From: Cerrena zonata
Taxonomy: Eukaryota > Basidiomycota > Agaricomycetes > Polyporales > Cerrenaceae
Assembly: GCA_038087015.1 (NCBI GenBank)
Contig: JASBNA010000005.1
Coordinates: 1,488,001 to 1,552,000 of the forward strand
Direction: 5' to 3'
Length of the DNA: 64,000 nt
Below are positions 9,310 to 50,110 of the stretch, piece by piece (the first letter of the stretch is position 1; every line of letters begins with the position of its first letter). Below the pieces are notes generated by a model. That model was given only the letters and a program-made list of their open reading frames with translations, had not been told where the DNA came from and did no database searches. The position numbers and the translations under genes are program-made.

Positions 9310-9640
9310 CGACCTCCTGAAGACACTCCGTGTGGGAGTGCTCGTACCTATTCGCTAGGGCTGACTGTTCCAGCAGCCGGCTCCGGCACAAACACAGTCT
9401 TCAACAGGGTAAATCCTCAAGACCTGAGACAGAAACCTCAAAATCTATGATATAGACTCTGGGTTGGGACGTGGTCACTGCCGTCATGGTATGCAACGAT
9501 TGGGGATGGTACTTTACCACAGAGTTAGATCTATAAAACGTCATCAGGATACATAAAGACTGTTTCCAGGAGTATAGAGTCCATCACCGCAGTTGACCCA
9601 TGTCTCAAGCCCATGTTGTCTGAAGGCTGATGTTTGTGTC
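9310..9640 (-). pseudogene. Relic of a subfamily 2 kinase-like gene (exon 2 and exon 5 pieces)
   Basis: On the minus strand, 9535-9310 matches exon 5 of the intact copies at 32.7-34.2 kb and 36.6-38.1 kb. It can still be read as SNSVVKYHPQSLHTMTAV and PRVYIIDFEVSV before a stop codon interrupts it. Bases of about 9570-9630 match the exon 2 stretch encoding RQHGLEQWIYG. Exons 3 and 4, with the HRD catalytic motif, are missing between them. There is no open frame across the whole. It is non-functional as a kinase. Confidence 0.75.
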
Positions 9641-9758
9641 CCGCAAACACGTTCAGTATAATTCATCTCGTTAATCACAAGATCACAATCATGTATACTA
9701 ATAGCCATATGTCGAGGTTACCAATAACCTGACGGTACCCAATCTTTCTTCTATAAGC

Positions 9759-11701
9759 CTATGATGGCATAAGCTGGCCTGCAAATGCTGCATAGCTCCA
9801 GATCCTTGAACAACCTCCCCTCGACACCGAGATACGTATCCTGATATCCCGGCCTGTAGACATTTTTATACTGAACTGGTACGGCACTTTCGTGAAGTCT
9901 AACTCCACGTCCAAAGCTGAAGATTGCAAGGATGCAAATTTATAGGAATGTTCTGGCATTTTAGCCAGTTCCGATATGTGGTACTGGGCGAGCCTCTTCA
10001 AATGTTTTATGTCTCGCGATGAGACATCCGACAAGCTATTCTCTAAGGTAATTTTACATCAAACTCAGCTCACGGGTCTTCAATTATAAATAAAGCTTAC
10101 CATGAAAGAGGGATTTTTCATAATTACATTCTTCACGGTGCGGGAACTTCGAGCATTTCCAATGGATCTTCTGGCATTCTGAGCTGCAATACCCGGGGAC
10201 TCGACACCCGCCACATCGTCTGAGCGTGAATTCTGCGGTTGTTAAATCCTTATTCCAGACGTAATAGCACTGATGAAAGAGGCGTAATGAATTAGTAGAC
10301 ATATCACAGTGGACTGCAATCTAACCGTAGGATTGGCACACTTCTCATAGAGATACACGGGCTCTTCGGAAACACGGTTAAGAATAGTGCATTGTTCCCC
10401 CACTGCGACCTTGAATTGCGTCCATGACCTTTTCAACCCCGGATTGTTGATATGCTCGTCTAACCCGGCCTGGGTTATTCTTAAGAGCTCTTTTTGAGTC
10501 GCTTCTAGGACCGATCGATAAGTGAGATACAACGGCAAGAGTTGAGTGAGGAATTTCGAAAGATATGGATGTTCGTCATTCTCCGCGTCGCATAACCAGG
10601 CATCACAACGGAGCAATGCCTGCAGTACACACTCCCGGATGAGCTGCAGCACCCATGTGACGCCGTCGAAATAGCATTCGACCATTTGGCAGCAACAGGT
10701 GATGCACATGCTGATTGCTGAAAAGTGTTTCCGTCGGATGTACTTGTCTGCGCTCGTACTGAAAGAGGATGGAGGACGTCCCACGATCTTCCAAAGAACC
10801 TCCAAAATCTTCCCAACAAGACGTTGGAATATCGGAGTATAACATCTATTGAGGTCCTTGCGGTTCAACAGATGGACTATGATCATTACACCGTGACAGA
10901 ACAGAATCCCATCTTTATCAAGACCGGATAGAGTTTCATCGAGAAATTCGATGGCGGTCAAGGCAACAGACTCTACTGGTTTCTGCGTGCATTCTTCCCA
11001 TACTTCTCGAGGTTTAGAAGCGAAGGCTTCAAGATATACGACAATCAGATCAGTGCAAGTTACGGTTATGAATTGATATCGATCCTGCGAAAACGACATC
11101 TTGTTTAGGGCAATATTCTTCCATATGCATAGAAGGGTATTGAGAAGGTGGGGGTTATCGATGAAGAGAGTTCGAAGTGGATTGTTTTTCCTTTTGATGA
11201 TGTGATGGAGAAACATGAGTGCAAGATCGGTATAATTGCGTCGGATGCCAGCGGGCACGTCCACTTCATGAATTGATCTCATAAGAGAGGTAACCATCGC
11301 TGTAGAATGTCGGAATGAACGAAGAGTACATCGCATACCTGCACATGACGTGTGTCCAGAGGAATCGTCGTGATTGTTGGATAATCCGATTCCGATACAG
11401 GTCCAACTCTCGATAAGTAAGAGTTGATCTAAGCCAACGCGCGCGGCGTTCTCTGCTTGTATTAACATTTGAGGACCCCATTGAAGGAGAAACAAATCGA
11501 CAATACGCTCGACTTTCGTCCGTTCACATGGCACTCCGAGTCCCATTATCATTTGGTTGATTACTACGAACGCCGAATCTGCATCTTTCGATGTAGGTGC
11601 TCTCTGTATGACGCGGGCAAACAACTATAGTATCCAGTGCGTCAACAAAATGTCGACTTCTTATGCGATAGATATGACTTAACCTCTAGTCTGTCTGTCA
11701 T
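9759..11701 (-). CDS. MYND-type zinc finger protein
   Basis: Four exons on the minus strand join in frame to about 589 aa: 11701-11684, 11624-10326, 10269-10101, 10042-9759. The first exon encodes only MTDRLE. The large second exon is helical and Cys-rich, without a domain I can name. The zinc finger spans the exon 2/3 junction: CANPTC, then CGGC, then GYCSSECQKIHWK, CSKFPHREEC. This is the Cys/His spacing of MYND fingers, which usually bind proline-rich partner peptides. A tail of about 95 residues follows. Mushrooms hold large families of single-MYND proteins of unknown role, and this is probably one. No partner is suggested by the neighbours. The exon 1 donor is GTTAAG, slightly off consensus, so the extreme N-terminus is less certain. 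Confidence 0.82.
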
Positions 11702-12299
11702 CTGGCAGATTCCCGAGTAAGCGAGAGTGAAGTTAAAGTCTTTCGGTAGCGCCAGGAGTCTTCACTCAGCTGAGTTGTGGAAGGCTATTGTGAGTCCCCC
11801 ACGACTAGGCTTAGAGGCTGATTTCTCTGAGTCTCTCAGGCTGACAGCGATGTCCAGCGGAGTCCGAAAATCTACGTAGATGGGAGTAACACGGTAAAAT
11901 GGAAATCAGCTATCACGAAAAGCTGGAAGAGACACTGGCGATGCGTTGATATTGGTCTACTCTAAAAGGGACGGAACGCACCGTAAATGGTCCTAGTTCA
12001 TGAGCTCATGAGTTTATGCACAAATGCTACGGATGAGAGCATCTATTTCAGGCCTCCTCTTTGTACCCAGACAGTTACCAGGTAAACCAAGGCCATTCCT
12101 GCGCGCTGATCATTCGTCTGTTTATAGTTCCGATGTACACTCCCTTTTAATACAGATCGTAGTCGAATTACAGAGCTCCAAGCTCAATAGCAGAGTACAA
12201 ATAAAACTGAACACATTAATTAACAGAGTAGAGGAACCAAATAGAAAGCCTGTTAACAAATTGACTGACCTTAGTAACGAATATTTGTTTCGAATGAAG

Positions 12300-12374
12300 G
12301 CTGTCCGACCCTAGAATCACGGCTGCGATAACAAGGCTATTCGGTTTAACAAAACCGCGAATGACAGGATGCAT
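12300..12374 (-). pseudogene. Exon 1 relic of a subfamily 2 kinase-like gene
   Basis: Minus-strand reading from ATG 12374 gives MHPVIRGFVKPNSLVIAAVI. It aligns with the membrane-anchor exon of the intact copies (MPALGSFPAQPKTLIIV and MPLLNSIPAQVKPLVIV). The subfamily upstream box (GTTGATGTGGCGT on the minus strand) is kept at 12428-12440, 54 bp before the ATG. No later exon can be recognised between 11702 and 12300. Confidence 0.55.
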
Positions 12375-12978: not shown

Positions 12979-14435
12979 TCAACCTCTCACGCAAATTGGT
13001 GGAACTAGTAGGGATTCTGGTGGTATACAATTGACTATTTGCCTCAGTCTCGCGAAGGCCTCAGGTGCGGTAGGGCGTGCAGTAGGTTCTCCTGACTCCA
13101 TCGCTAAAAACAACTTGTTTATATCAGGTATTCCCATCTAATAGGAGACTATTAATTGGAGATACTGACACGTACAAAGATAAAAGATACATACCTCTAT
13201 CCTATGTGTGAATGTGTACGCAAGCTGCCAGAGATCTAGTTTGAATGGACACCATGGTTTGTCTTCGTCTAGCTCATCCGGATAGGGACGCAGGTATTCT
13301 TCTTGTGGATACCACCTAGCTAACGGATAGCCGGTGCAGACACGGTCTTCAACCGGGCAGTTAGGTGAGAATTCAATTGCAAACTCAAAGTCAATGATAT
13401 AGACTCGAGGCTTGCTAACTGCGACTTCCATGGACAATAGAGACTCGGGTTGCCAATCAACGAGGAAGTTGGTGGAAAAGAGATCCTGTGGCGGGGCTTC
13501 AACATGAGATACCGCTGAGCGAATCATGGTACTTACACGATGACAAATATTCAGCTCATGAAGGAATGCAACTCCCTATAGAAGACGTTATTGAGTATTA
13601 CAAACCACGCTAGAAAATAGAGTACCTCTAGGATCTGCAGCATCATATCGAGGATATCTCCAACCGAATTCTTCGGCCAACAGTCCCATGACTCATCGAC
13701 ACAACCACCTGTCTTTGGGAAGACACCAAAAACAATGTCCTCAAGTGCGAACTCCCAAAACAGCGGAAGGCAGTGATTGTTGCTTAGAAGCGCCAAAGGT
13801 CCAGTCGACGTCTTGCGTATGATGGAGAGATAATCATGACCCTCGTCACGGATAGCCATCACCCTAACTACGACCGGTTGCCCATTTCTGGTTTGTGCTG
13901 CTCGGCTAAGAGGATTCTACAGGCATGTCAAAGATACGCCCCGCGAAAGTGATTTGGAGCAAATTTTGATACCATGTAAGCAAAAACACCCAGCCAGCTA
14001 GCAACACCGGGACCACAACTCTCAAAGCCACGGATTGGATGGACGTAGGAATATCCATTGGGAGATATAATCTTGTTGGGAGAAGGGGAGGCTATCTCAG
14101 TGGAATACATATGTACCCATGGCACCAGGTCTACTTCGTGGAAAAGCTCTACTAGTGCTTGCCATAGGTCCTCATCTTCTAACGGGGGAGGAGGAAGCCG
14201 CCAGGTCCATATGCTATTGGGAAGCTAGAATAGCCATGTCAGAGTCCATTGCCGGACGTTGCATAATTGGCGTTCCGAATGAGAACGGAATGACCTTGTC
14301 TCTAAGATGTTTCCTCAAAACCCTGGCCCTGTATGATTTGTACAGAGAGACGCAATACGCCGAGCTACCAGCAAGAAATGGTAGTAACGCAAGTACTATA
14401 AGCCTTGGACAAGAAGAGAGTCCGAGTCGTGACAT
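12979..14435 (-). CDS. Membrane-anchored kinase-like protein, subfamily 1 (copy A)
   Basis: Six exons join in frame to about 390 aa: 14435-14295, 14224-13973, 13916-13626, 13575-13537, 13485-13195, 13137-12979. Exon 1 encodes MSRLGLSSCP and one hydrophobic helix, suggesting a type I or signal-anchor topology. Kinase landmarks in order are: PVVVRVMAI (Arg at the usual VAIK Lys), LEDIVFGVFP, NICHR|DLFSTNFLVDW (HRD-x4-N, with the intron between R and D), VYIIDFEFA (DFE for DFG), then WCPFKLDLWQL (subdomain IX DxW). The tail is ARPTAPEAFARLRQIV. Loss of the Lys and of the DFG Gly suggests weak or no phosphotransfer, but the catalytic loop is intact. It is the neighbour and sister of the broken copy B. 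The start was chosen by alignment with copy C. Confidence 0.85.
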
Positions 14436-14913: not shown

Positions 14914-16331
14914 CTAGGAGGAGACGGCTTTAATATTCTTATTTGACAATACTTGGCGCATGGATGGTATACGATTCACCAGCTGACTCAGTTGTATGAG
15001 GGCCTCTCTTGCAGTAGCACGTTCTATAGGTAGATCTGATTCCATCGATGCGAATATGTTGTCAATTTCCGGAATCCCAGTCTCGAAAAAAAGGGGGGTT
15101 AGACATTGTACAACAAGAACATGAATCGCATACCTTAAGACTCCAAGTTGTGAACGATTATCCAAGTTGCCAGACGTCTAAGTTGAATGGACACCAAGGT
15201 GAGTTATCGTCTATCTCGGGTGAGCAAGGTCGGGTATAATCATCCCTAGAATACCATTTGGGACAGGGAACACCGGTACATACGCGCTCCTCTGGAGGAT
15301 GGTCGACCGGAAAATCTATAGCAAGCTCAAAATCGATGATGTAGACACGCGGCTTATCAACCGCAATCTCGTCCGAGAGGAGCGACTCTGGATGACACTC
15401 GAAAAAACCCTACTAATTCTATCAGTCTCATGCGGTTACCTCAGAGAAATGCTCTCACCCGGTGTGCAATATTCTGGTCATGTAGAAGGGCAACCTCCTG
15501 CGTGAGAAACCAATCAGTAAGATTGTGCTTCATTCTTCGACGAGCTATTCACTTCAAGGATCTGTAATGTCATGTCGAGAATGTTCCCGACCGAATTCTT
15601 AGGCCAGAACCTCCAAGCATCTTCAAAACAGCCACCTGCTCGAGGGAAGATACCAAACGATGTCCTCGAATATGAAGTCTCTGATGAGAGAAAGACAATG
15701 ATTATTGCTAAGAAGAGCGAGGGGGCCAGTCGATAATTTGCGCAGAATAGACACATATTCATGCCCTTGATCTCGAATCGCCATCATTCGAACCATCACA
15801 GGCTGACCATGTTTCGTCTCCGATGCACGCGTAAGACCATTCTAACCATAATATGTATTAGTATAAGTGATGTATTCGCGACGCTAAACATGAATGAATA
15901 CATCGCACCACGTAGTTGAACCATGCAAGCAATCATATTGCTGCACCTGGTCGTTGAATTTTCGATCCGCGGATAGGATTAACGTAAGCATACCCATTGG
16001 CTGATACAACTCTATTTGGTGACATAATTTCATCGGAAGTGCGAACTTTCCAGGGCACCAAGTCGACTTCTCTGGAAAGGTCCTCAAGGTACTTCCACAA
16101 CTTCTCCTCGTCCAGTGGAGTTGGAAGCAATCCGGGCGTTCTCCGGGTGTAAATACTGTCAGGGAGCTGGAGGACAATGTCAGGATACACTGACGTGGCA
16201 TCAGTCAATCAGGCACACGAAACCTTTTCTCTTGTTTTCTATCTCCGCGAGGTTTGAAGGTACATTGAAGCAACAATCGATACCGTGACGGTTGTGGCAG
16301 CAAGGCCAGTGTATAGCAATAGTCATGACAT
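14914..16331 (-). pseudogene. Full-length kinase-like pseudogene, subfamily 1 (copy B)
   Basis: The six-exon plan of copies A and C is recognisable, but several lesions break it. In exon 1 the third codon is TGA where copy C has CGA, and a TAG follows later. In exon 2 a TGA falls where copy C has the Trp codon of the GAAVW segment. In exon 3 a 2 nt deletion lies in the codons for DIVFG. The start of exon 5, which should encode the D-x4-N half of the catalytic loop, is scrambled. The stretch KPRVYIIDFELAIDFPVDH and the subdomain IX stretch (CPFNLDVWQLG) remain readable. Exon 6 ends at 14914. No functional kinase could be made from it. Confidence 0.85.
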
Positions 16332-18603: not shown

Positions 18604-21600
18604 ATGGCATCCTGGACTCCTCAACAGTCTGCTCTGCAGGAAATCCTACAGACGATTCACGATTCAACAGACTCCCAGAATGCTGCCATTCAGCGGACAA
18701 TTACTCATGTATGTCTCATATTTCAAAGTTTCGATTCATACACTCACCTGCCCGTTCATCTTCGCCCAGAAACTGAACTCATTTACACGCGCACCAGATT
18801 ATATTGCTTATCTGGCATACATCTTGGCCGCCTTGACCCAGGAGGAGGAGCGGATCCGCACCATTGCCGGATATCTCCTCAAGAATAATGCGCCCCTCAT
18901 CCACCGAGCCTCCCCCGAAGTCGTGGCCTTTGTCAAAGCGGGCGTACTACAAGCGTTCAGCGATTCTGCAACAATGATTCGCAATGCTGCTGGTCAAGAC
19001 ATTGTCGCCTTCTTGGGTATACTCGAACCAAGAAACTGGCCGGAGTGTTTGCAGCATTTGGTGAATGCTTTGGATAGTAATAACCTGGATCATCAAGAGG
19101 TGAGCGCATTCAACCATTTCGACGCGAGATTACACTCCCTATGGTCTTAAAATGAAGCAAGATTCTGTGGCGTCGGCTCTTGATGTGATATATCTCATCT
19201 GTGGCATTTTATGCTTCCCTTCTACGAAGACGACGCGTATTATTGCCATTACGGGCAGATGTTTCCTGTCACATTGCCTGATTTACGCCAGATCGCTGTC
19301 ATTCATGCAGGAGACCACCATTCGCCTTTCGCGGTCCAGGTCCGACCGTCATCGGTAGCTCCAAGTAATCTCAAATTGGAGGGCCCCTTCTTTCATCAAC
19401 CAACATCTCGTAATCCTGAACTCTACTTACCTCGATCTTTGATTAGGCGGCGTTCAATGTGCTTGAGAAAGCTTGCGAAGACTATCCCCGCAAACTCGAT
19501 GTCGAGATCAATGGCACCTGGCCTTTGGAATACATGATTCCGAAATTCTTGCAGCTCTCCGAACACCCGTCATCGAAGATGCGATCGCATGCAATCGCGT
19601 GCCTTTCATACTTCGTCCCCATCAGCTCTCAGGCGTTATTCGCCCACATTGACAACTTTATTGCTTGCCTCTTTAAACGCGCTTCGGATGAAGACCCATC
19701 GGTACGGAGACATGTCTGTCAAGCCCTTGTTTTGCTTCTTGCTTCGCGCCCCGAAAAACTCATTCCTGAAATGAACAATGTGGCGGAATATATGCTATGG
19801 TCGACAAAAGACAAACACGAGAACGTCGCTCTTGAAGCTGCAGAGTTCTGGCTCACCTTCGCGGAAGATCCAGAGCTTTCTCCTTACCTGCAGCCTCTTT
19901 TGCCCAAAGTTGCCCCTGTGCTATTGGACTGTATGGTTTATGGCGAAGATGATCTTCTCTGGCTAGAAGGCGATCTTGAAGATGCTGCCGTTCCTGATAG
20001 GGAAGAAGACATCAAACCCCGTCATTATAGTGGCAAAACTCATGGTTTCGAACGAGAAGCTAACGGTGACGGTTCTGCGGCCAAACGTACTGGCGCTTAC
20101 GGTGAAGAACTAGAGGATGACGATGACGAAGGGTTTGAAGAGGATGAAGATGATTTTGTCGACGAGATGTCTACGGAATGGAACCTGCGAAAATGTGCCG
20201 CTGCTGCGTTGGACGTACTAGCAGTTCGGTTCGGTCCCGAACTACTGCACGTATTGCTTGAACCTCTTAAGACAAAACTCTGGAACGAGGACTGGTTGCA
20301 AAGGGAGAGTGCTATATTGGCTCTGGGTGCTATGGCCGAAGGTAAGTCACATCTATTTCGGTCTCATCACCTAGTCTCATAGTCTAAACATACTATAGGT
20401 TGCATTGACGCCATTGAACCCCACCTTCCAACTTTGATTCCATATCTGACTGCCCAGCTCGGCGATACGCGAGTACGTCGCCCTTATCATTATCAATGAT
20501 AAGACGCTGATACTTACCTTTGAAATAGCCACTTGTAAGGTCCATTACCTGTTGGACATTAGGACGATATGCTAGTTGGTGTACCCAACCGATTTCGGAG
20601 GAGCATAGAAATACGTTCTTCATCCCGACTTTGGAAGGGGTGCGTATTTCCCCTATATTTAGGGATATTGATCCTCATTTTTCGTTAGCTTTTGAGAATG
20701 GTGCTGGACAACAACAAGCGAGTTCAAGAAGCTGGCTGTAGCGCATTTGCAACGTTGGAAGAAGATGCTGGTCCTGAATTGACTCCTTACCTGGACCCCG
20801 TTCTAAGGAACCTCGTTGTCGCGTTCGACAAGTATCAACACAAGAACATGCTCATCTTGTACGACGCCGTGGGCACACTCGCGGACTCGGTCGGAGTTGC
20901 TCTGCAGAACCCTGCTTACGTTGACATTCTCATGCCTCCATTATTGAAGAAGTGGTCAACCCTGAAAGATGACGATGACGATCTGGTGCCACTATTGGAG
21001 GTTCGTGGCCACCTGATCAAAAATTCTATATTCCGACAAAGTCTAATTTTCGTCTTTGTGTTTTAGTGTCTTGCATCTGTTACCATTGCCATGGGTGCCT
21101 CTTTCCAGCCTTACTGTGGGCCAATTTTCGAACGCTGTGTCATGATCGTCCATACCTCCCTGCTGCAATATCAAGCCTATCAACAGAACCCGGATATGGA
21201 CGAGCCAGATCGCTCGTTCCTAGTTGTTGCCCTGGATCTACTATCCGGTCTCACGCAAGGCCTTGGCCTGGAGCTTTCATCCCACATCTCTCGCAGTACA
21301 CCCAGCTTGTTTGAACTGGTGACCGTGTGCCTCAAACATCCTCAGGCACCTGTGAGGCAATCCGCGTATGCTCTCGTGGGTGATTTGGCCATGAACTGCT
21401 TCCAGTTGTTGCGTCCCCACATGCCCAGCATCATGAACGAACTCATTGCACAGCTTGATCCCGAACCGAAGGTCGAATTCGTGAGCGCATGCAATAACGC
21501 AGCGTGGTCCGTCGGAGAAGCAGCGTTACGATATGGAAGAGGTATGTGCTTGTCATCATTTATATCAATATCATTGACAGATCATGCTGATTCCCGTGTC

Positions 21601-23179: not shown

Positions 23180-24535
23180 ATGGATAAGCCGAAGTCCTGG
23201 GTAATCGAGCAAAAAGCAATAACTGGATTGTCTTTTATCGTTTTCGTGCTCGTGTGTCTTCCGCTTCCCGGTTTTCTCAAAAGTACATCTAATTAATATT
23301 AATTTCGGGAAACGTCGGACTAACATGAAGTTTCAAGGCCGCAATATTGGTTGCTCATTATATGGCATCTGGATCGCTTTCCTTTGTCTGACAACCTTTA
23401 TCCATTGCATTATCTGGAGTGATAATGCAATCAATAGTGCACCAGTATGGTGCGAGATCTGTTAGTTCAGCCTATTCAAAACGTATACATACCTCTCAAA
23501 GTTATTGACTTGCACTTAGATATTCGTTTTCAGTACGCAAGTAGCGTAGGAATACTCTCCGCTGCCCTTGTGATCGCACGACGGGTGTCCTTGATTTCCA
23601 CATCGTCTCCTGCGGTGCTATTGTCGCACAACAAGATGCGTGGAATGTGCATCGATCTGGCTATTGGACTCAGTCCACCAATAGCTCAAATCATTGAGTG
23701 TATGTGTCGCCATAGAAACTCACTTGCGATCCTTATCATTCTATGTTATACAGATTGGTTCCTTGCAGGACATCGATTCGACATTTTAGAAGGCCTTGGC
23801 TGTTATCCTGCAATCCCATTCTCTATTCTGGATATCTGCCTCAGGTGGATCTGGCTTTTCATAATTGGATTGACTTCCGCTTATTACTGTGGTTTGTCGT
23901 CTTTTCATTCTATCACTCGGGTTTTATGATAACTATGAGTCTATTGCATAGTGAGAACTCTCCTTGCACTTAGAAGGCGACAGAAAGAGATCAAAGAAGT
24001 CTTATTTGCAGCAAATATCGATAAACAGCTGTACTACCGTCTTGTGGCTATGGCGTGCGTTGAAATATCATGCACTCTCCCGCTGGTCACATATCTCGTA
24101 GTCGGAGCCAGGACAGAATATTATCCCTGGAAGGGCTTCGCCGACCTACACTATAAGTTTAGTCGTATAGACCAGTATCCTTACGCTTTGTGGGCAGCAT
24201 TCCCTGGCGCTGCACAAGTGACGCAGTGGTTCCAGATTGGCTGTGGACTCGTTTATTTTTTACTACTGGGGCTCACCCGCGACGCACGATCTCGATATGC
24301 GAAAATGCTCGGTCTCTCTAAACTGTTCCAAAGCCTCACAGGGGATATTATGCCAACGTCTACTGGGAAGAAATCCAGACGGTCCACGAACTTCCCGTGG
24401 AGAAAGAGGCACACGGCACAGCGACCCACTCCTCATCACGTATCGACCGATCTTCATTTCAACTCTTGCCCGACCTCAATAACAGAGTCGGGGCTGGCAA
24501 CATCAGATATAGATCATACCATGGAGAGTGTTTGA
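23180..24535 (+). CDS. STE3-like pheromone receptor (seven-helix GPCR)
   Basis: In mushrooms this receptor family senses lipid-modified mating pheromones, usually from the B mating-type locus. Some paralogues lie outside it. Five exons join in frame: 23180-23282, 23338-23460, 23520-23699, 23754-23891, 23952-24535, about 375 aa. Landmarks are GFLKSRNIGCSLYGIWIAF after helix 1, VWCEIYIRF at helix 3, MRGMCIDLAIGL before helix 4, LAGHRFDILEGLGCYPA in the second extracellular loop (the family motif), then VRTLLALRRRQKEIKEVL in loop 3 and YPWKGFADLHYKFSRID before helix 7. A Ser/Thr-rich cytosolic tail ends at TGA 24533-24535. The third donor was set at GTATGT 23700, which restores the frame. No CaaX pheromone gene was seen nearby. 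A spliced 3' UTR may follow (GTACGT near 24543). Confidence 0.9.
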
Positions 24536-26639: not shown

Positions 26640-26840
26640 GCTCACTGATGGATATCGATGATGAGTATACCTCCATCGTACGCAAGACCTGGCCTTCTAA
26701 GCTATAACCGTTTCCAAAATGTATAGACAGAGTTCGCGCATTGTTTATGGTGTTTTCTCAATACAGGTGGGTGTACTGTTGGCTGAAGAATTTGGCTGGA
26801 AGAACCCGATACTACAGATCCTAGAGGTACTATACTCTCC
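26640..26840 (+). pseudogene. Exon 3 relic of a subfamily 1 kinase-like gene
   Basis: Plus-strand sequence aligns with exon 3 of copies A and C. TATACCTCCATCGTACGCAA matches the codons for the segment YLSIIRK of copy A, and GATACTACAGATCCTAGAGG matches the exon 3 end (MILQILE plus splice donor). Internal deletions remove parts of the DIVFG and KNSVGDILDM segments. No flanking exons are recognisable. Confidence 0.65.
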
Positions 26841-28597: not shown

Positions 28598-30044
28598 ATG
28601 TCACGATTATTACTATTTACTGGCCTTTCTGCTACAGCATTATCTCTTCTTGGCTCAGCGTATTATGTTATAAAGCTCAAGTCTCATAAAGACAAGAAAC
28701 GGCTCAGGGCGAAGGTTCCTTTCACTATATCGGTGCCACGTCGAAGCATTCTTATGTGTTTTTCTAGCTTCCAGATGGAATTTTCGCCTGGAGAAGACCT
28801 ACCGTGCTTCCAACTCCATTAGGAGAGGAGGAAATATGGCAAGGCCTGGAGGACCTCTTCAGAGCAGTTGACTTGGTTCCATGGATATCTAGGTATATCT
28901 CTGAGACAACTTCACCAAACAAAGTTGTGTCGGCCAATGGATTTTCTTACATTACTCCTATCCGTGGTTCGAAGGATATAGGTCCAGGTGCAGCAGTCTG
29001 GCTTGCGTTCTTTAATTACATGGTGCGAATCGTTCTTCGCCTTAGCCACAGATATCCCGCTTACACAAATAACCCGTATTCAGAATCCTCTTACGCGTGC
29101 TGCGGAGACGAAGAATGGACAGCCTGTCATGGTTCGAATGATGGCAATCCGTGATCAAGGGCATGAATGTGTTTCTATTCTGCGCAAAATAGCAACTGGC
29201 CCTCTCGCTCTCCTCAGTAATAACCACTGTCTTCCACTCTTCAGAGAGTTCACTTTTGAGGACATCGTTTTCGGTATCTTTCCTCGGGCAGGTGGCTGTT
29301 TTGAGGAAGCTTGGGGGTACTGGGCCAAGAATTCAGTCGGGGATATTCTTGATATGATACTACAGATCTTAGAGGTAAATTGTTCGGCCTTGATGTCTCG
29401 AAATAGAGTACTGATCAGGATGTGTTCTATTTGACACAGGGGGTTGTCTTTCTCCATGACCATAATATTGCCCACCGGGTAAGGTCATTTCATAAAGTAA
29501 CTGCACTGGTCTCATATTTTGAACTTGCTAGGATCTATTCAACGCTAATTTTCTAGTCGATTGGCACCCAGAATCTATGCTCTCAAATGAGACAGCGGTT
29601 AGCAAACCCCGGGTCTATATCATAGATTTTGAATTTGCTGTTGAGTTTCCAGCCGACTGTCCCTCCGAGGAACGTCTTTGTGTTGGTCTTCCATGTACCA
29701 AGTGGTATGCTGATGATTATACCCGACCTTATCCGCCTGAGATCAACGAAAGCATTCCTTGGTGTCCATTCAAATTGGATATCTGGCAACTCGGGTACTC
29801 GTTTACATTTGAGGGTATCAGAGTATGTATTCCATATGTCTAAGTATTGTTTTCCGTCTACTAACACTGTTATCTTGCTCAGACTAGCATTAAGGAGATA
29901 GACGAACTCTTCTCAACGATGATATCTGACCAACCTGCGGAACGCCCTACCGCAAAGGAGGCCTTCACCAAACTAAGACAGATAGTAAATTGTATACCAC
30001 CGAAGGACTTACTTGTAGAGCCCAGTTTTGTCGAATTTGAATAA
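28598..30044 (+). CDS. Membrane-anchored kinase-like protein, subfamily 1 (copy C)
   Basis: Six exons join in frame to 384 aa: 28598-28714, 28768-29022, 29084-29374, 29440-29478, 29532-29822, 29883-30044. Exon 1 encodes MSRLLLFTGLSATALSLLGS, a membrane helix followed by a basic stretch. Kinase landmarks are: PVMVRMMAI (Arg at the usual VAIK Lys), NIAHR|DLFNANFLVDW (HRD-x4-N kept), VYIIDFEFAVEF (DFE for DFG), CPFKLDIWQLGYSF, then AERPTAKEAFTKLRQI. The last three internal exons are 291, 39 and 291 nt, exactly as in copies F and G. It stands alone on the plus strand facing the minus-strand copies D-F. An upstream in-frame ATG (28523) is possible, but alignment with A favours 28598. Confidence 0.88.
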
Positions 30045-31539: not shown

Positions 31540-32029
31540 GGCGCGGCCAGGGTTTACCGCGGTCCAGGACGTGGGGAGGGATAAGCAAATCGTGTGGTGG
31601 GATTCCACTTACTGTACCCCTTAGTGTATTCAAGGCTTCTTTCGCACTTGGCCTCTGGGTGATATCTTCGTGAACCAAACTGACCAGAAGCTCATCGATA
31701 GCTGGTAAGGTTGTCTGTAAAAAGATATTAAGTTGTCAAAAGCTGTAAACGATCTACGAAGTATATGGTTTACCCTATATGTCCACAATCCAGTGAAACT
31801 CGCGCCGAACTGCCGCACATCAAGTCCGAAAGGCGAATATGACTGTCCTGAGCGTACTTCCGGTGGGACCGGCCGTGCCCATTTACCAGGGGGGGATTGT
31901 TCCACCAACCGAGGAAGTCCATTTGCAGTAGGAGTAATTTAAAGCGGATGCCAAAACAACGGCAGTAGTCACGGATATGACAGCAAGTGGCTTCAGTGGG
32001 ACAGAGAGAGGGTTCAGAGAGGCTATCAT
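31540..32029 (-). pseudogene. Deletion-chimera kinase-like pseudogene (copy D)
   Basis: From ATG 32029 the minus strand encodes MIASLNPLSVPLKPLAVISV and the rest of a membrane helix, as in exon 1 of copies E-G. At about 31920 it runs directly into the middle of exon 5 (PAGGTI..GKWARPVPPEV), so exons 2-4 and the HRD motif are deleted. A run of seven C shifts the frame at the join. LDVWQFG of the intact copies has become LDVRQFG. Exon 6 (TTLPAIDELLVSLVHED) is still open. The subfamily upstream box is kept at 32147-32159. Confidence 0.8.
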
Positions 32030-32683: not shown

Positions 32684-34164
32684 TTATTGCTGATTTGTGA
32701 CAATGGGAGGGATGAGCAAATCAATTGGTGCCATCCCGTCCACCACACCCCTCAGCATGCTCAACGCTTCCTTCGCGCTTGGTCTATGGGTGACATCATT
32801 GCTGACTAGGTTGATCAAAATATCGTCAATCGCAGCGATGGTTGTCTGTACAAGTATGAAGCTCAATATGCTGCTTGACTGAACATAGAGATATGTGGCT
32901 CACCCTGTACGTGTATAATCCAGTGAAACTGTAGCCGAACTGCCACACATCGAGCTTAAAAGGTGAATAGGGTTCCCCTGAAGTCACTTCCGGCGGGACT
33001 GCTCGTGCCCATTTTCCCGGGCAGATTGTTCCACCAGCCGGTAATCCAACACAAACACAGCTCTCGAAGGGAAGTTCTTCGAGAAACGCAACTGAAGTCT
33101 CAAAGTCTATGATATAGACTCTAGGTCGGGATGTAGCTACCGTCATAGTACGCAACGACTCGGGATGGTACTGTATCACAAAGTTAGATATATTTGCATC
33201 CTATAACAGAACTCATATCGGTATGTACGTTAGGTCGAAAATGTTGGGATGAACAAACTCACCCGATGCGCAATCTTTTGTTCGTGGAGAAATGCGAGGC
33301 CCTGTACGGCTCATGTCAGCCAGTAAGGTAGCTTTATATGAGAAATTTCGACTGGCCTCAAGAGCTTGCAGGATCATGTCGACCACATCGCCTACCGAGT
33401 TCTGTGGCCAGAAGTCAAAAGCCATGTCCATGTCATTTCCTGTCAAAGGAAAGATCCCAAGGGTCACGTCCTCAAAGTCAATCGTACCAACCATAGGTAG
33501 GGTGTGATTATTGCTCAGGAGCGCAAGCGGACCAGTCGCAATTCTCCTCAAAATCTTCAAGTGTTCAATGCCTTCGGTACCCAATCTAATTGGTCGGACA
33601 GTGACGTCGTGACCGTTCTTCATACGGGCAATTCTGAAAGTCGCATTCTGAGTAGGGAAAACTAAGTGAGTAATGAACTATTTGTCTGTCAAAATACTAA
33701 ACATACACTGTATTGCATTCTCGAAAGTGAGCGGGCAGTACCTACCCCGCCTTCCCCTGAAGCACGACTAGGTCCAATATACACATAACCGTTGGACATA
33801 CGCAAACACTCTCCGGGAGAGTTGAGATATCCCCTGAAGCTATAGAACCACGGCTCCAGCCCATGGTGACGAAGAAGGGGATCTAGCAGCTTCCAGATGC
33901 CTTCAGATGCTCCGTAGTCGGTATTGTCTTTAGGAATTCTCCACAGTGCAAGGGTACCTGGAAGCTGTATATCGTGATGTAAGATAATGAACTATTATTG
34001 GGAGCAGAAATGAGATTGACTTTGGTTCTTAGTCGCTTGGTATTCACGGGAGTCATCCATTTGAGACGTAAGTAACTTGTGACCGACAACAGGACTACGG
34101 TTGTAGCTGCTGATACGATAATAAGGGTCTTGGGTTGGGCAGGAAAGGAACCAAGGGCCGGCAT
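32684..34164 (-). CDS. Membrane-anchored kinase-like protein, subfamily 2 (copy E)
   Basis: Six exons join to 396 aa: 34164-34021, 33964-33707, 33647-33357, 33301-33263, 33200-32904, 32845-32684. The membrane anchor is MPALGSFPAQPKTLIIVSAA. Next come GEGGVG (a GxGxxG loop), HDVTVRPIRL (Arg at the VAIK Lys), QKIAHR|DANISNF (HRD-x4-N), VYIIDFETSVAF (DFE), PPEV and SPFKLDVWQFGYSF. Exon lengths equal those of copy G except exon 5, which has two extra codons. The exon 3 donor is GCCAGT where F and G have GTGAGC and GTCAGT, so splicing of the third intron may be impaired. The exon 1 donor GTCAAT is also weak. The subfamily upstream box lies at 34234-34244, about 70 bp before the ATG. Confidence 0.82.
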
Positions 34165-36592: not shown

Positions 36593-38058
36593 TTACCGTG
36601 TGACAGTGGGAGGGATGAGCAAGTCAATGGGTGCCATTTTGCTCACCACACTCCTCAGCATGCTCAATGCTTCCTTCGCGCTTGGTCTATGGCCAACATC
36701 ATCGTTGACTAGGTTGATCAAAATATCGTCAATCACAGCAATAGTTGTCTGTACAAGTATGTCGCTCAATATGCCACTTAAATGAGTATAGAGATATGTG
36801 GCTTACCCTGTACGTATATGATCCAGTGAAACTGTAGCCGAACTGCCACACATCGAGCTTAAAAGGTGAATAGAGCTCCCTTGAGGTTACTTCCGGCGGG
36901 AGTGCTCGTGCCCATTCGGTGATTGTTTCACCAGTCGGCACTCCGACACAAACACAGCTCTCGAAGGGCAATTCCTCGGGAAACGCAACTGAAGTCTCAA
37001 AATCTACGATATAGACTCTAGGTCGGGACGTGGCTACTGTCATAGTACGCAACGACTCGGGATGGTACTCTACCACGAAGTTAGATATATTTGCATCCTA
37101 TAATAAATTTCGTTTCGGTATGTACATTAGACGGGGAATATTGGAATGAAGGAACTCACCCGATGTGCTATCCTTTGTTCGTGGAGAAATGCAAGGCCCT
37201 GTATGGCTCATGTCAGCCAGCAGGATAATTTTATATCAGAGTTTTGGCTCACTTCAAGAGCTTGCAATATCATGTCGACCACATCGCCTACCGAGTTTTT
37301 GGGCCAGAATTTGAAAGCTCTGTCCATGTCATTTCCTGTCAAAGGAAAGATTCCAAGGGTCACGTCCTCAAAGTCGATCGTACCAGCCATAGGTAGGGTA
37401 TGATTGTTGCTTAAGAGCGCAAGCGGACCAGTTGCAATTTTCCTCAAAATCCTCAAATGTTCAATTCCTTCGTTACCTAGTCTGATTGGCCGAACAGTGA
37501 CGTCGTGTCCATCCTTCGTGCGAACAATTCTAAATGTAGCATTCTAGTAACAACCAATTTTAGAAAACAGCTTTTGGAAATACCAAACTATGACTATATA
37601 CCAAATATTGCATCCTTGAAAGCGAGCGAGCAGTGCCCACATTGCCTTCCCCTGACGCCCGACTTGGTCCAATATAAGCATAGCCTCTTGGCATGCGTAC
37701 ACTATCCCCAGGAGCATCGAGGTATGAAAGGCCGCCATAGATCCATTGCTCTAGCCCGTGCTGTCTGAGGAGCGGATCCAATGTTCTCCAGATGGCCTCA
37801 CTGTCTTCGTCATCGACGTCCTCTCCTGGGCTTCTCCATAATGCAAGGTTTTTTGGAAGCTAAATGACATGACGTTATAGAATGGTACATTACTTTAAGT
37901 AGAAACAGATTTACTTTGACTCTCAGTCGCTTCGTATTCACAGGAATCATCCGTTTGAGATGAGAATAGCTTACGACCGACAATAGCACCACAGTCGTAG
38001 CGACTGATACGATGACAAGTGGCTTTACCTGTGCAGGAATGGAATTTAGGAGAGGCAT
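36593..38058 (-). CDS. Membrane-anchored kinase-like protein, subfamily 2 (copy F)
   Basis: Six exons join in frame to 392 aa: 38058-37915, 37859-37602, 37543-37253, 37198-37160, 37097-36807, 36748-36593. The anchor exon reads MPLLNSIPAQVKPLVIVSVA. Landmarks are SGEGNVG (GxGxxG loop), HDVTVRPIRL, QRIAHR|DANISNF, VYIVDFETSVAFPE, LPPEV and SPFKLDVWQFGYSF, and the tail SMLRSVVSKMAPIDLL. All donors are standard GT. It is the closest relative of copy G in exon 2 (WIYGGLSYLDAPGD in both) and shares 5' and 3' flanks with E. The GATGTGGCGT box seen before E and G is not recognisable here. Like its relatives it is probably a pseudokinase or a highly atypical kinase held at a membrane. Confidence 0.87.
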
Positions 38059-38119
38059 AGTCTCAGCAGTAGGAAGTAAGAGCCGTGGACAGCGACAGTA
38101 TTTGGTCCCATCAGTGACA

Positions 38120-40617: not shown

Positions 40618-40714
40618 CCACGCTTTGATCTCAGGACTTCACCTGTGACGGTCTCAGTGACTCTAGACTATCGTTACACGATTATAACTCGTAGAGACTT
40701 GGAATGAACATATA

Positions 40715-44206: not shown

Positions 44207-47200
44207 ATGAACGGCGCTAACTCGAGGACTGACCTAACTCTGAAGGATCTGGAGGTGACACTTTCGTCTACTTGGTTACAAAACTCTAGATCTTACCCTT
44301 ATTTATGCTTATTAGGCAAAGTATTCCAAGGCCGCGAGGGCGGAGCTCAACCGTGAGCTAGACCGTGCCTTCCGTCTCTACATCGAAGTTGCCCAGGATT
44401 TCATGCATTTGGGTGGCACCACCACCAATGCGTCTATCCGTGCTGCATGTAAGACCAACGCCGGAAAGTCCCTTGGTCGTGCAGAGCTTATTAAACAGAA
44501 GAGACCAAATGTTACACCGGTTGTCATCGACCGATTCTCAGAACGTAAGAATCTGGCACTACGTGTTCTGTAGATTTCATCGCACTGAGCTTCAATATAG
44601 AGGAACAGTTTGCTACCCTAAGAAGCTCGTCCGTCATAAACGGTACTCGGTTTTCCTTTTGGTCGGAAGCCTCAACATCAAGGTAAGATGAAAACTTACC
44701 GTTCTACGACACATCACCTCATTTACAGACCAGGACAGGTTCATCCCAACCTGCTCTATCACCAGAGCAAATACAACATAGTGCCGCATGGAGCTATGTT
44801 GATAAAGCCCCTGATGGTACTACTCCTGACGCTCTTCACCCGTACGATATCATACAGCACATAGTGTCCGATTGCTCGGTCTGTGCAGCTATTGCCGTAT
44901 GTATAGAACATGATCGACGCTTTGGTTCGAAGGTATTAATGGCTCTCGTTTACTCTTTTCTTGAACAATGAACTCATGCTATTTTTAGCTTGGCTACTCG
45001 TCGTTACAACAAGAAGCAGATCAAGAGCATCGCTACGATCTCAAAGTAATGTATAATGGGACGTATCGACGAGTAAGTGTTTTCTTTTCAGTTTTAGATA
45101 TCCTGAACACTGATTTAACAACCAATACTCAGGTCGGTTAGCTCATGTTTTTCTACGAAACCTACAACATAATCTCATTTTTCTTGAGTAGATATCGATG
45201 ACCAACTACCCTGTTATCCTGATGGTCGACTTATGTGCTTGTCGACCACCAACCGATCAATTCTATGGCCTTCACTGATTGAAAAAGCAGTGAGTAATCC
45301 GTAGCCCTCCGAACCCTCTCTACCTCCGCAACTCATTATTTATTTTTGGAGTATATGAAATTAGTCGGCGGATATGACTTCCCGGGATCGTACGTCCTGA
45401 AATAGTTCATGTGGCAGAAAGATAGCTAAATATACTGTCAGAAATTCAGGAATCGATCTACAGTACGTCCTCATCATGCATAATGCTGGTTTCGACGCCG
45501 ACTTATGGTGTGGCCAAGTGCATTGACAGGTTGGATACCAGAACACATTGACCTGAGAGGGTCAGTTCTAGACCGTCCACAATTTTTACGTGTGCTGATA
45601 GCTTATCATAGGTCCTATTTCGAACGAGAAGCAACATGGGAACGTATCGCTCGCGGTTTTAGAGAAGGTAGTATTTCTCACCGCTCAATCAATACAATGT
45701 GTCTAATCCGCCTCAGGTCGGTGTGTTCTTACAGTAGGAACGGGAGAACGACTTCTAGATCCCGAACTATCCCGATGGAACTCCTTCCAGCGCACTGTTA
45801 CGCCGTAATCGGTCTGCTTATTCATTATCTGTACCGTGTCTGCCGAACTGAAGTTTCGTAATAGATGTCATTGACGATGAGAATGGTCGCAGGATGACTA
45901 TTATTGACTCGCGTGTACCGCACGAAGCGTCTGTGGGAGCCGCGGGAAGTTTAGGTCTCGAACGATTGACATTGACAGAAAATGTCGATCAGCGATCTAG
46001 TAGGTCATATCGTCGAGCTTGGGAAAGCAGTGACTTATAACGTTATAGGACCTTGCGAGTTGTCATGGGACTCGGTTTGTAATACCTTCGAAGGGATATA
46101 TTTGAGCTGGGATCCTGCCATCTTCCCACAGAAGCTCACGTTTCATGGGTTAGTACCATTGCTTCCCGAAGAACCTCACATTCTTATTACTATTATTTAG
46201 GAAATGGAAACGTGATCCAGACAAGAGGGGTCAACGTAAGTACGATACATGTCGATGTTCAGATATTACTGATGTCATATCCACATAGCCCAACATTTCA
46301 GAACGACACTCAAAGCGGACACATCTTCGGAAGTAGAAATCTGGGTTCTGTTAACGAGACATGTTACCGACTCTAAACGGAAGTCGGAGTATGTTTCTCT
46401 TTCCGTCCAGCATAAGACATCGTTGGACGTTAGCTCATCGTATCTCAAAGTAAGTCGTGAACTGTGGGGAAATGTTACGAAGAATGCTAATTCTTAATAT
46501 TGTACCAGGGCTCATATACTGATAGCACCCATTTCCTTGTAAGTCGAACGAATGACTGCGAATGGATGAGACTTATTCTTCTCATACAATTCTGGGATAG
46601 GCTAAAGCTCACGTCTCGCCAACATCATGCGAAATATCTGTCATTGCATCATATGATGGTGACTACGACGACGTCGGGTTCACTCTGACCGCTTTATCAT
46701 CTATCCCTATATCCTGGGTACGAGAATCAACTGTTCTACATCATACCAAGAGGGTTCGTATTTCACCCCATAGATGTGATTCGGCGACTAAATACATCTG
46801 GAAATAGCTCACGGGCGCATTCACAGCCAAGACAGCAGGAGGAAATCCTTCTTATCCTTCCTTCATGAACAACCCTCAATATCGATTGCGCATACCGCCA
46901 GGTCCTATGTCTCAACAACGAAGAAAAGTCCATGTTGAGATGACAGTTGAGAGTGATCGACATATTCCCGTTAATGCGATGATTGCTTGGTCGAAGGGAA
47001 ATCGAATTACTGAGTGAGTTTATCGTAACTTAAATGAAATATTACGTCTTTCTTACCATCTGATCATCATATGTAGGTTAGCGCAAAATGAGATTGTTGC
47101 CTCGTCTGGCCCGTATTCATACGGCTTCGCTCATACTGCTAAAGAGCTCTCAGGTACAATTCACTCTTGAGTTTACGTTTCTTCCAATCCTGACTCACTT

Positions 47201-47837
47201 AAATAGCTGGCGAATACACAGTCATAATCTCAGCATTCGATCCTCAATCATTGGGGCCATTTAGCCTCGATGTAGCAAGTACTCAACCAGTCGAGTTTGA
47301 ATCTATAGCACACGAAGGTGATGGGATGATCAGTAAAGTCATGCGAGGCTCATGGTATGTGTATTTCCACAAAAATAGTTCGAAAAGTTTCATCATGACT
47401 TTCACAGGACGACAGAGACCGCGACAGGGGGTCCTTCATTCAATAAATACACTTCAAATCCCATCTATGAGCTCAATATCCCTACGCAAAGTCATCTCAA
47501 GTGCGTCTTTCCATATTTAATTCACAGTCTACCGTTCATCACGATACCTCTCCCCAGAGTACGACTTCAGCTTGTGGACAGTAAAGCCGCAGCTCCGATC
47601 AACGTCACAATCTTCCGTCCTGGGGAAGATGGCGTACTAGGATCCCAAGTTGCGACGTCGGGTCCATATACCGATACAATGCCTGGAGTGATTACTCCCC
47701 AAATTCTGGCTCAGCCCGGGAAATATCTCATAGTTTCGTCGACATATTCTCCCGGAATTCTTGCTTCGTTCAAGTTGATTGTATATTCTTCGACGACCGG
47801 TGTTTCGATTACTAACCATCAAAGTCGTATTGTCTAA
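44207..47837 (+). CDS. RIM13: Calpain-like cysteine protease of the palB/RIM13 type, with one apparent frameshift
   Basis: In fungi this protease activates the alkaline-pH regulator PacC/Rim101 on endosomes. About 23 small exons run from ATG 44207 to TAA 47837. An MIT-like N-terminus (AKYSKAARAELNRELDRAFR) is followed by the catalytic Cys region (VSDCSVCAAIAVCIEH), DIDDQLPCYPDGRLMCLS, YMKLVGGYDFPGS and the His region (IDLHALTGWIPEH). Then come LSWDSVCNTFEGIYLSWDPA, domain III (EIWVLLTRHVTDSKR) and a second beta domain ending YSPGILASFKLIVYSS. Exons include a 4 nt one (45133-45136) and several of 20-40 nt. Between VLTVGTGERLL and LLPAHCYAVI (about 45757-45785) the frame changes by one base with no splice site available. 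This is either a sequencing error or a gene-breaking lesion. All downstream exons remain open, which favours recent loss or error. Confidence 0.85.
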
Positions 47838-48018
47838 TACTCGTCGATCAATGTCGTTCATTGAGTCTCCTAACGTCCCGCATCGTAGTCGTAATTGACA
47901 AGTAATGATCGAGTGTTTGGGACTATAAGAAGCTTCTGATGGAAAGCGCTTGATGTTGTGGATGCTAAATATGTGCTTATATTCTCAGATTCGTTCGTAG
48001 ATCTTCCAACTTCGTTGA

Positions 48019-48029
48019 TGATGTGGCGT
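48019..48029 (+). promoter_or_regulatory. Subfamily 2 upstream box (TGATGTGGCGT)
   Basis: It lies 33 bp before the ATG of copy G. The same box precedes copy E (34234-34244, minus), the chimera D (32147-32159, minus) and the relics at 12428-12440 (minus) and 49960-49969 (plus). It was probably a core promoter or activator site inherited with exon 1. Confidence 0.6.
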
Positions 48030-48061
48030 CTTACGTCTAGACCTCTGACTACCCACATACT

Positions 48062-49520
48062 ATGCCCTCTCTTAACTACTTTCTCTTCCAACCGAGATCA
48101 TTTGCTGTTGCATCGATAACAAGTGCTGTAGCCCTGACAGTGATCATAAGTTACTCATGTTTAAAGCAGGCAAGCTCTGTGAACACCAAGCGACTGAGAG
48201 CCAAAGTAAGTTTTATTTCCACTTTAAGTGATAAACCGTTGTATAACATCATGTCATTTAGCTTCCAAAAGCCCTTGCATTATGGAGAGTCCCGGGTGAG
48301 GATATTGATGACGAGGACAGCGAGGCAATCTGGAAAGCGCTGGATCCGCTCCTCAGACAACATGAGCTAGAGCAATGGATCTATGGTGGCCTTTCATATC
48401 TCGATGCTCCTGGAGACGATGTACGTATGCCCAGAGGCTACGCTTATATTGGACCGAGTCGGGCGTCGGGCGAAGGCAATGTGGGCACTGCTCGCTCGCT
48501 TTCAAGGATGCAGTATACGGTATGTTACAGTTTGGTATTTCCAGAAGCTATGAACTAAAATTGGTTGTTACTAGAACGCTACATTTAGAATTGTTCGTAC
48601 AAAGGATGGCCACGACGTCACTGTCCGGCCAATCAGACTAGGTACTGAAGGCATTGAACATCTAAAAATTCTAAGGAAGGTAGCAACTGGTCCGCTCGCG
48701 CTGCTAAGCAATAATCATACCCTACCCATGGTCGATACAATTGAGTTCGAGGACGTGACTCTCGGAATCTTTCCTCTGACAGGAAATGACATGGAAATGG
48801 CTTTCGACTTCTGGGCACAAAACTCGGTAGGCGATGTAGTCGACATGATCCTACAAGCTCTTGAGGTCAGTTGAGAGCTTTCCTGCAGATCTCCCTTACC
48901 GCTGACACGAATCGTTCAGGGGCTCGCATTTCTCCATGAACAAAAGATTGCGCATAGGGTGAGTTTCTTCATCCCATCTAACGTACATACTGAAACGAAT
49001 TTATTATAGGATGCAAATATATCCAACTTCGTGGTGCAGTATCATCCCGAGTCATTGCGCACCATCACGGTGGCCACCTCCCGACCTAGAGTTTATATCA
49101 TAGACTTTGAGGCTTCAGTTATGTTTCCCGAGGAATTGCCCTTCGAGAGCTGTGTTTGTGTTGGAGTGCCGACTGGCGGGACAATCACCCAATGGGCACG
49201 AGCACTCCCACCCGAAGTGGCTTCAGGCGAACCCTATTCACCTTTTAAGTTGGATGTGTGGCAGTTCGGCTACAGTTTTACCGGACTGTGTACGTACAGA
49301 GTAAGTCATGTATCTATATATTCAGTTGGGCGGTATATTGAGCGTCGTACTTGTACAGACAAGTATTGCTGCGATAGACGATATTTTGATCAACCTGGTC
49401 AACGATGATGTTGGGCATAGACCAAGTGCGAATGAAGCGTTGAGCATGCTGAGGGGTGTGGTGTGCAGTTTGGCACCAATTGATATGCTCATCCCTCCCA
49501 TTGTTACGGAAGAACGATGA
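48062..49520 (+). CDS. Membrane-anchored kinase-like protein, subfamily 2 (copy G)
   Basis: Six exons join in frame to 394 aa: 48062-48205, 48262-48519, 48575-48865, 48920-48958, 49010-49300, 49359-49520. The anchor exon encodes SFAVASITSAVALTVIISYS, then a basic stop-transfer stretch. Landmarks are SGEGNVG, HDVTVRPIRL (Arg for Lys), QKIAHR|DANISNF (HRD-x4-N, intron between R and D), VYIIDFEASVMFPE (DFE for DFG), LPPEV, SPFKLDVWQFGYSF and GHRPSANEALSMLRGVV. All splice sites are standard. It lies 10 kb from copy F and on the opposite strand, yet exon 2 is almost the same at the protein level. This suggests a fairly recent inverted duplication. Partner and substrate are unknown. Confidence 0.88.
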
Positions 49521-49959
49521 AACTGCATGGATATTCACATCTGTTTACTGTTGCCTCTACCTGTTACTTCCATGCAATCGTTGATTCTAAGTTAAAGTTA
49601 AAGTTATTCTCTCATCACTTGTGGGCTTCTCTTCTGGCTAAAGGCATTGCTGATGTCAATGCATCGTGATATCAAATGATTGCGACCATGATTCCGTGCC
49701 GGTAGGTTCGACTCGGAGAATCAATAATACCCTGCACCATATAAACTATAGAAGTATGGTCACGGTGTTAGTTCTCTACCATCTGTGACCTGATAATCTG
49801 ATGAATTAACCCCATACGTACTATGAAGATTTAGAAAAAGACGAACAAAGGAACAAAGGCATGTACCGTTGGTAACCTTACTCGTAGGGACAATTGCATA
49901 TAAGCTTATCGGATTTGTGGCAGGATCGAAGCCCCCCGCACTCAAGCGGAGACATAATA

Positions 49960-50110
49960 GATGTGGCGTATTTATTCCATTCAGGGCTCTACCATGCATC
50001 GGTCGTAGATGATGACTTCCTTTGACCCTCTTTCTGTCCCACTGAAGTCACTTGTTGTCATACCAGTGACGTCTGAGATGCTGGCTGCAATTAGTAGTCA
50101 AAATATCATA
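49960..50110 (+). pseudogene. Promoter-plus-exon-1 relic of a subfamily 2 kinase-like gene
   Basis: GATGTGGCGT at 49960-49969 is followed 43 bp later by ATG 50012. The reading MTSFDPLSVPLKSLVVIPVT aligns with the anchor exons of D (MIASLNPLSVPLKPLAVISV) and F. The later part of the helix and all other exons are missing. It sits about 490 bp downstream of copy G, as if a second gene had once followed it. Confidence 0.6.

What the first reader, a model, noticed from the sequence alone, without database searches (positions are those of the whole stretch)
9310..50110. Local birth-and-death family of membrane-anchored kinase-like genes
Eleven members or relics lie in 41 kb: five intact (A 12979-14435, C 28598-30044, E 32684-34164, F 36593-38058, G 48062-49520), one full-length pseudogene (B), one deletion chimera (D) and four smaller relics. 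All share six exons, and internal exon lengths are nearly constant (252-258, 291, 39, 291-297, 156-162 nt). Each starts with one membrane helix. HRD-x4-N is kept, DFG is DFE, and the VAIK Lys appears to be Arg. Conservation of this odd residue set across two subfamilies suggests selection for a pseudokinase or atypical kinase role, possibly in self/non-self or environmental sensing. The role is inference.
Basis: partly seen in the sequence, partly recalled or inferred. Interest (0 to 1): 0.85.

Follow-up and report, generated by a model that had tools for sequence, protein, structure and literature searches.

The report
Mushroom membrane-anchored atypical kinase cluster
A wood-decay mushroom carries a local, still-changing cluster of membrane-tethered kinase-shaped proteins, from a family seen in many mushroom-forming fungi, whose active site departs from normal protein kinases in a fixed and conserved way, so whether they are working enzymes or signalling dummies can be tested directly.

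Summary
The window is Cerrena zonata contig C5. The fold is that of a eukaryotic protein kinase (AlphaFold pLDDT 91, pTM 0.90). In 71 homologues, beta3 Lys is Arg (69), while HRD-Asp (68), Asn (69), DF-Asp (70) and DFE-Glu (69) are kept; all five together in 64. GxGxxG and a Lys two after the HRD Asp are absent (0 of 71 each); the inferred alphaC-Glu position is His in 56. Close copies are under purifying selection (NG86 omega 0.15-0.26, 15 of 15 pairs). Two subfamilies predate the Cerrena/Somion split and expanded separately. Contigs C5 and C115 differ by one copy. Kept Mg/ATP residues, and DFE in active small-molecule kinases (papers), favour an atypical enzyme over a dead pseudokinase; activity is untested. 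Sensing or self/non-self roles are unsupported: 3-15 residues precede the helix. Nearest named kin: AgaK1. Local clusters of lineage-specific kinases are ordinary in this genome (FunK1).

The parts
12979..14435 (-). Gene A, intact; six exons (141, 252, 291, 39, 291, 159 nt), 390 aa, subfamily 1 (HRDLFSTN, DFE)
   Evidence: spliced alignment; Pfam Pkinase 36.4 bits, cut-off 31.7, scored on a provisional model two residues short
14965..16331 (-). B, full-length pseudogene of subfamily 1: in-frame stops, frameshifts, catalytic-loop deletion
28598..30044 (+). Gene C, intact, 384 aa, = deposited QCA50_005275 (P0001); subject of the AlphaFold model
31562..32017 (-). D, deletion chimera: membrane-helix exon 1 joined to the end of exon 5 and exon 6
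32684..34164 (-). Gene E, intact, 396 aa, = QCA50_005276 (P0016); intron 3 is GC-AG
36593..38058 (-). Gene F, intact, 392 aa, = QCA50_005278 (P0015) without 45 N-terminal residues of the deposited model
48062..49520 (+). Gene G, intact, 394 aa, = QCA50_005283 (P0014)
9285..9657 (-). Relic: exon-5 fragment with weak traces of exon 2
26661..26839 (+). Relic: gene-A-like exon 3 remnant (DNA level)
   Evidence: best piece E 7e-6; reversed control 0 hits
50004..50075 (+). Relic: exon 1 (membrane helix) remnant
   Evidence: E 2e-12; as protein only E 0.43, not above the reversed control

Best explanation
Shown: this is a family of roughly 385-400-residue proteins with a eukaryotic-protein-kinase fold, seen in many mushroom-forming fungi, often (not always) with an N-terminal hydrophobic helix, which in Cerrena expands and decays by local duplication under purifying selection. 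Inferred: the helix is a signal anchor with the short N-terminus outside or in the lumen and the kinase domain in the cytosol, so each protein is a tethered cytosolic kinase-like domain, not a ligand-binding receptor. Inferred: it binds Mg-ATP and transfers phosphate by an altered active site. Arg replaces the beta3 Lys, the alphaC Glu is lost (usually His), the glycine loop is replaced by a Y-x-N-P-L-like loop, and the Glu of DFE supports catalysis, as mutants show for choline kinase, perhaps through the Mg-bound water as in maltokinase. Substrates are unknown.
Against: Lys-to-Arg at beta3 usually kills ordinary protein kinases (recalled; PAK1 K299R structures appear). The alphaC Glu (2 of 71), the catalytic-loop Lys (0 of 71 at that column) and GxGxxG (0 of 71) are gone, and a passage of PMC4702295 holds a Lys in the active site to be required for protein kinase activity. 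CASK, the top structural row, is called a pseudokinase in its entry titles, though rows are tied. A helix passes the threshold in only 35 of 71 homologues, and gene C itself scores 1.52. The alphaC position was placed by sequence register, not from coordinates. No expression or activity data.
Confidence: 0.55

Rival explanations
1. Membrane-anchored pseudokinases: kinase-shaped scaffolds that bind partners or nucleotide but do not transfer phosphate.
For: beta3 Lys lost in 70 of 71, alphaC Glu lost in 69 of 71 by register, no GxGxxG and no catalytic-loop Lys (0 of 71 each); E, F and G score just under the Pkinase cut-off of 31.7 (31.4, 29.3, 31.6).
Against: HRD-Asp 68/71, Asn 69/71, Mg-binding Asp 70/71 and the DFE Glu 69/71 are kept; a scaffold has no evident need of the whole Mg-binding set.
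Confidence: 0.35
2. The cluster encodes a self/non-self or environmental recognition system.
For: Birth-and-death with a one-copy difference between C5 and C115; a solitary STE3-type receptor lies between members B and C; AgaK1 gene CC1G_09799 listed at 5.9 and 7.1 under the E. coli and B. subtilis treatments in Coprinopsis (PMC4704728 table passage).
Against: 3-15 residues before the helix; no exon with omega above 0.58 in six pairs; six STE3 loci cluster on C46, not here, and a crude CAAX scan found only two unconvincing ORFs in the window; the AgaK1 gene is a distant relative.
Confidence: 0.07
3. Neutral tandem-duplication noise: a decaying family with no function.
For: One full pseudogene, one chimera, three relics and a nonsense codon in the C17 copy.
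Against: omega 0.15-0.26 and conservation of the active-site set across 71 homologues.
Confidence: 0.03

Closest known systems
AgaK1 (Other/AgaK1 protein kinases, so named in Coprinopsis cinerea records)
   Same: Homologous (29% identity over 70% of G, E 4e-11); N-terminal Trp63 invariant in the 71-row alignment that includes one AgaK1; HRD-Asp and Asn in 24 of 24; Glu at the DFG-Gly position in 10 of 24; Arg at beta3 in 12 of 24.
   Different: AgaK1 group keeps the alphaC Glu in 24 of 24, has Lys at beta3 in 12 and Gly at the DFG-Gly position in 8; separate clade on a long, fully supported branch (three AgaK1-group rows).
FunK1 / Pkinase_fungal (PF17667)
   Same: Fungal kinases in large local clusters in this same genome; an acidic residue replaces the Gly of DFG in the two exons read (DFD, DLD).
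   Different: No PF17667 row for A, C, E, F or G.
Choline/ethanolamine kinase and maltokinase type small-molecule kinases
   Same: DFE motif; glycine-free P-loop in maltokinase (papers, passages). H-x-D-x4-N and an Arg at beta3 in choline kinase are recalled.
   Different: A passage calls the extended activation segment unique to ePKs; here the APE-type Glu and alphaF D-x-W are kept. PF01633 16.5 bits against a cut-off of 29.
FslK (fungi-specific lineage near tyrosine kinases, PMC3937382)
   Same: Agaricomycete-expanded with recent species-specific duplications (passages).
   Different: Described there as conserving ATP- and substrate-binding residues; its sequence table was not readable, so the relation is untested.

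Membership tests
Eukaryotic protein kinase (ePK) | Bilobal ePK fold | tested here: met
   (model of gene C only)
Eukaryotic protein kinase (ePK) | HRD Asp, catalytic-loop Asn, Mg-binding Asp | tested here: met
   68, 69, 70 of 71
Eukaryotic protein kinase (ePK) | APE Glu, alphaF Asp, late Arg (R352) | tested here: met
   68, 71, 69 of 71
Eukaryotic protein kinase (ePK) | VAIK Lys, alphaC Glu, glycine loop, catalytic-loop Lys (marks of a canonical active kinase) | tested here: not met
   Lys 1 of 71, alphaC Glu 2 of 71 by sequence register, GxGxxG 0 of 71, Lys at D+2 0 of 71
Pseudokinase | One or more canonical catalytic residues missing (abstract of PMC7586955) | tested here: met
   of VAIK Lys, HRD Asp and DFG Asp, only the Lys is missing as a rule
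Pseudokinase | No phosphotransfer activity | not testable with these tools
   needs an assay
AgaK1 | Falls inside the AgaK1 clade | tested here: not met
   43-row tree with three AgaK1-group rows
AgaK1 | alphaC Glu kept (24 of 24 in the AgaK1 group) | tested here: not met
   2 of 71, one of them AgaK1 itself
FunK1 PF17667 | Profile match above cut-off | tested here: not met
   no row for A at E 1 or for C, E, F, G at E 0.1
Choline kinase PF01633 | Profile match above cut-off | tested here: not met
   A 16.5 bits, cut-off 29
Receptor-like kinase | Extracellular ligand-binding domain | tested here: not met
   3-15 residues before the helix in the five window genes
FslK | Placement in the FslK clade | not testable with these tools
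   supplementary sequence table not available

The most novel reading that the evidence does not exclude
A branch of true protein kinases has converged on the active-site chemistry of small-molecule kinases (beta3 Arg, no glycine loop, no catalytic-loop Lys, DFE) while keeping the protein-kinase activation segment, and, being tethered to a membrane, phosphorylates a lipid head group or other small molecule instead of protein.
Probability: 0.12. Interest if true: 0.7.

Novelty: new variant of a known kind. Interest (0 to 1): 0.4.

Why it matters
Mushroom-forming fungi carry large lineage-specific kinase families of unknown role. This one has a fixed, unusual active site kept by selection, is simple (one helix, one kinase domain) and comes in tandem copies whose number differs between contigs. 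It makes a clean test of whether 'broken' kinase motifs such as Lys-to-Arg and DFE mean a dead enzyme or different chemistry.

Tried and rejected
Mating-type link: a STE3-type receptor sits at 23.3-24.5 kb, but six receptor loci cluster on C46, the window receptor has no second DNA match, and a crude CAAX scan gave two unconvincing ORFs. Rejected as explanation.

Choline-kinase homology: rejected on profile score and on ePK marks. Small-molecule kinases do not show in the 50 structural rows listed, which excludes nothing.

Diversifying selection: no exon with omega above 0.58 in six pairs. NG86 gave no dS for 11 of 28 pairs and YN00 failed for 13 of 28, in each case pairs with A or C.

A fourth small relic was not found; a protein-level match at 60646-60756 (E 0.099) is too near the reversed control's best (0.22) to count. 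The C7:860k copy is a badly broken relic. Papers: searches showed, by their listings, no paper on this family; one search returned nothing. PMC2838846 (passages) reports many TKL kinases in Laccaria, not this family.

Whether C115 is the other nuclear haplotype or a segmental duplication is undecided; only 46912-53323 of it was held.
Full report
What it is. The window lies at C5:1488001-1552000 of a 55.5 Mb, 171-contig genome. Protein C equals a deposited Cerrena zonata protein on a contig of the same length as C5 (2,072,551), so the genome is Cerrena zonata, a wood-decay polypore (habit recalled).

Gene anatomy. A spliced-alignment script recovered all five intact genes with six exons and phase-0 introns of 50-70 nt. 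E has a GC-AG third intron. C, E and G match deposited proteins exactly, F matches but for an N-terminal extension, and A has no identical protein among those found. B, D and three smaller relics are confirmed, the last three at DNA level with no hit in a reversed, masked window. Elsewhere in the genome I saw further copies: one at C5:1574.5-1576.0 kb, two on C115, one on C17 with a nonsense codon, and a wreck on C7. The C17 copy is deposited as a 216-residue fragment ending before the stop.

Family and distribution. Two homologue searches gave 55 and 106 proteins, 122 distinct ids; those bearing an organism name are mushroom-forming fungi (Polyporales, Agaricales, Russulales and others; order assignments are recalled). 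Somion occarium, which I recall as a close relative of Cerrena, has nine entries standing for 28 member sequences on a 2.4 Mb contig; their spacing could not be seen. In a 43-row tree, subfamily 1 (A, C with three Somion rows, 100/99) and subfamily 2 (E, F, G, H5, H115b, K17 with six Somion rows, 100/99) both predate the split of the two genera. Within each, the Cerrena copies group at 100/100 and the Somion rows at 100/99 and 92/91. That is the signature of independent expansion.

Recent turnover. C115 matches C5 around the outside copy at 98.5% over 3,480 bases but carries a second tandem gene; the rest aligns at 91.5% over 2,923 bases. A 1.1 kb flank of the C5 copy matches only itself and two places on C115, at 97% and 94%. 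Either the two nuclei differ by one copy or there was a recent segmental duplication; I could not decide which.

Active site. In an alignment of 71 near-full-length homologues (71 of 122 ids, picked by eye; A2; it includes AgaK1 P0122, two divergent rows and one row, P0017, from an unnamed source), beta3 Lys is Arg in 69, HRD Asp 68, catalytic-loop Asn 69, Mg Asp 70, DFE Glu 69. The full set R-D-N-D-E is in 64 of 71. These positions rank among the 23 most conserved of 384 columns. GxGxxG is found in 0 of 71, and Lys two residues after the HRD Asp in 0 of 71. By sequence register with AgaK1, the alphaC Glu position holds His in 56, Gln in 8 and Glu in 2; gene A has Tyr, gene C Cys and gene E His there. 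I had no coordinates, so this placement and any Arg-Glu(DFE) contact are inference.

Comparison with AgaK1 and FunK1. A third search brought 24 AgaK1-group proteins, the query included: beta3 Lys 12, Arg 12; alphaC Glu 24; at the DFG-Gly position Glu 10, Gly 8, Asp 3, Asn 2, gap 1. So Glu there and Arg at beta3 occur already in the sister group, and loss of the alphaC Glu is what sets this family apart. Two FunK1 exons of the same genome read DFD and DLD. An acidic residue in place of the DFG glycine may therefore recur among fungal-specific kinases.

Dead or alive. Passages seen in PMC4702295 say the DFE Glu of choline kinase matters for catalysis: Glu to Ala lowers kcat tenfold and raises Km tenfold. 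Passages of PMC4306142 say maltokinase, an enzyme, has DFE and a glycine-free P-loop, its Glu contacting a Mg-coordinating water. Hence DFE and a missing glycine loop do not by themselves mean inactivity. Against this, Lys-to-Arg is the classic inactivating change in ordinary kinases (recalled), and a closing passage of PMC4702295 holds a Lys in the active site to be required for protein kinase activity, which this family lacks at the usual place. I put about 0.55 on an active atypical enzyme and 0.35 on a pseudokinase.

Selection. NG86 omega is 0.15-0.26 and YN00 0.14-0.32 in 15 of 15 within-subfamily pairs, which include the C17 copy with its stop codon skipped; A-C gives 0.11 with dS 2.35 and C-G 0.23 with dS 2.57, both near saturation; 11 of 28 pairs have no usable dS. 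By exon in six pairs, exons 3-4 are lowest (0.00-0.13); the highest single value is 0.58, for the membrane-helix exon. This does not suggest diversifying recognition.

Topology. In 35 of 71 a hydrophobic stretch passes a simple threshold before the conserved LPxxLxxWR motif; 62 of 71 have enough residues there to test. Gene models differ in quality, so absence is weak evidence. Of the window genes A, E, F and G pass and C (1.52) just misses. In 30 of the 35 the flank after the helix carries net charge +3 or more, suggesting N-out/C-in. The N-terminal tail of the window genes (3-15 residues) is too short for a receptor.

Context. Local clusters of fungal-specific kinases are common in this genome: 116 PF17667 matches (exon pieces, 107 of 213 candidates scored), many in runs on C25, C51, C11, C12 and C34. 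The cluster as such is ordinary for such a genome; the conserved odd active site is what deserves attention. The functional hints are distant: an AgaK1 gene of Coprinopsis listed at 5.9 and 7.1 under the E. coli and B. subtilis treatments (PMC4704728 table passage), and an AgaK1 homologue mentioned as down-regulated in a Sanghuangporus-Fusarium co-culture (PMC13214342 passage).

Noticed in passing
window 23325-24535 (+), approximate: STE3-type pheromone receptor gene between kinase members B and C; no second DNA match, and away from the six STE3 loci on contig C46, the likely B mating locus.
   Followed up: partly
window 25909-25978 and 26304-26373: About 70-base inverted repeat, 91.5% identical, arms about 330 bases apart, possibly a small transposon.
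   Followed up: no
window 4679-6722 (+), 19447-20382 (+), 53707-56141 (-): OPT oligopeptide transporter, HEAT-repeat protein, and an RTP1/TANGO6-like gene flank or interrupt the cluster.
   Followed up: no
window 10242-11624 (-): 460-aa open frame with no Pfam match at E 0.01.
   Followed up: no
G000 C25, C51, C11, C12, C34: Large local clusters of FunK1 (PF17667) matches; two exons read DFD and DLD at the DFG position.
   Followed up: partly
G000:C115:46912-53323 vs C5:1573225-1577284: Second copy of the region at 98.5% identity over 3,480 bases, with one extra tandem kinase gene; possibly the other haplotype of a dikaryon.
   Followed up: partly
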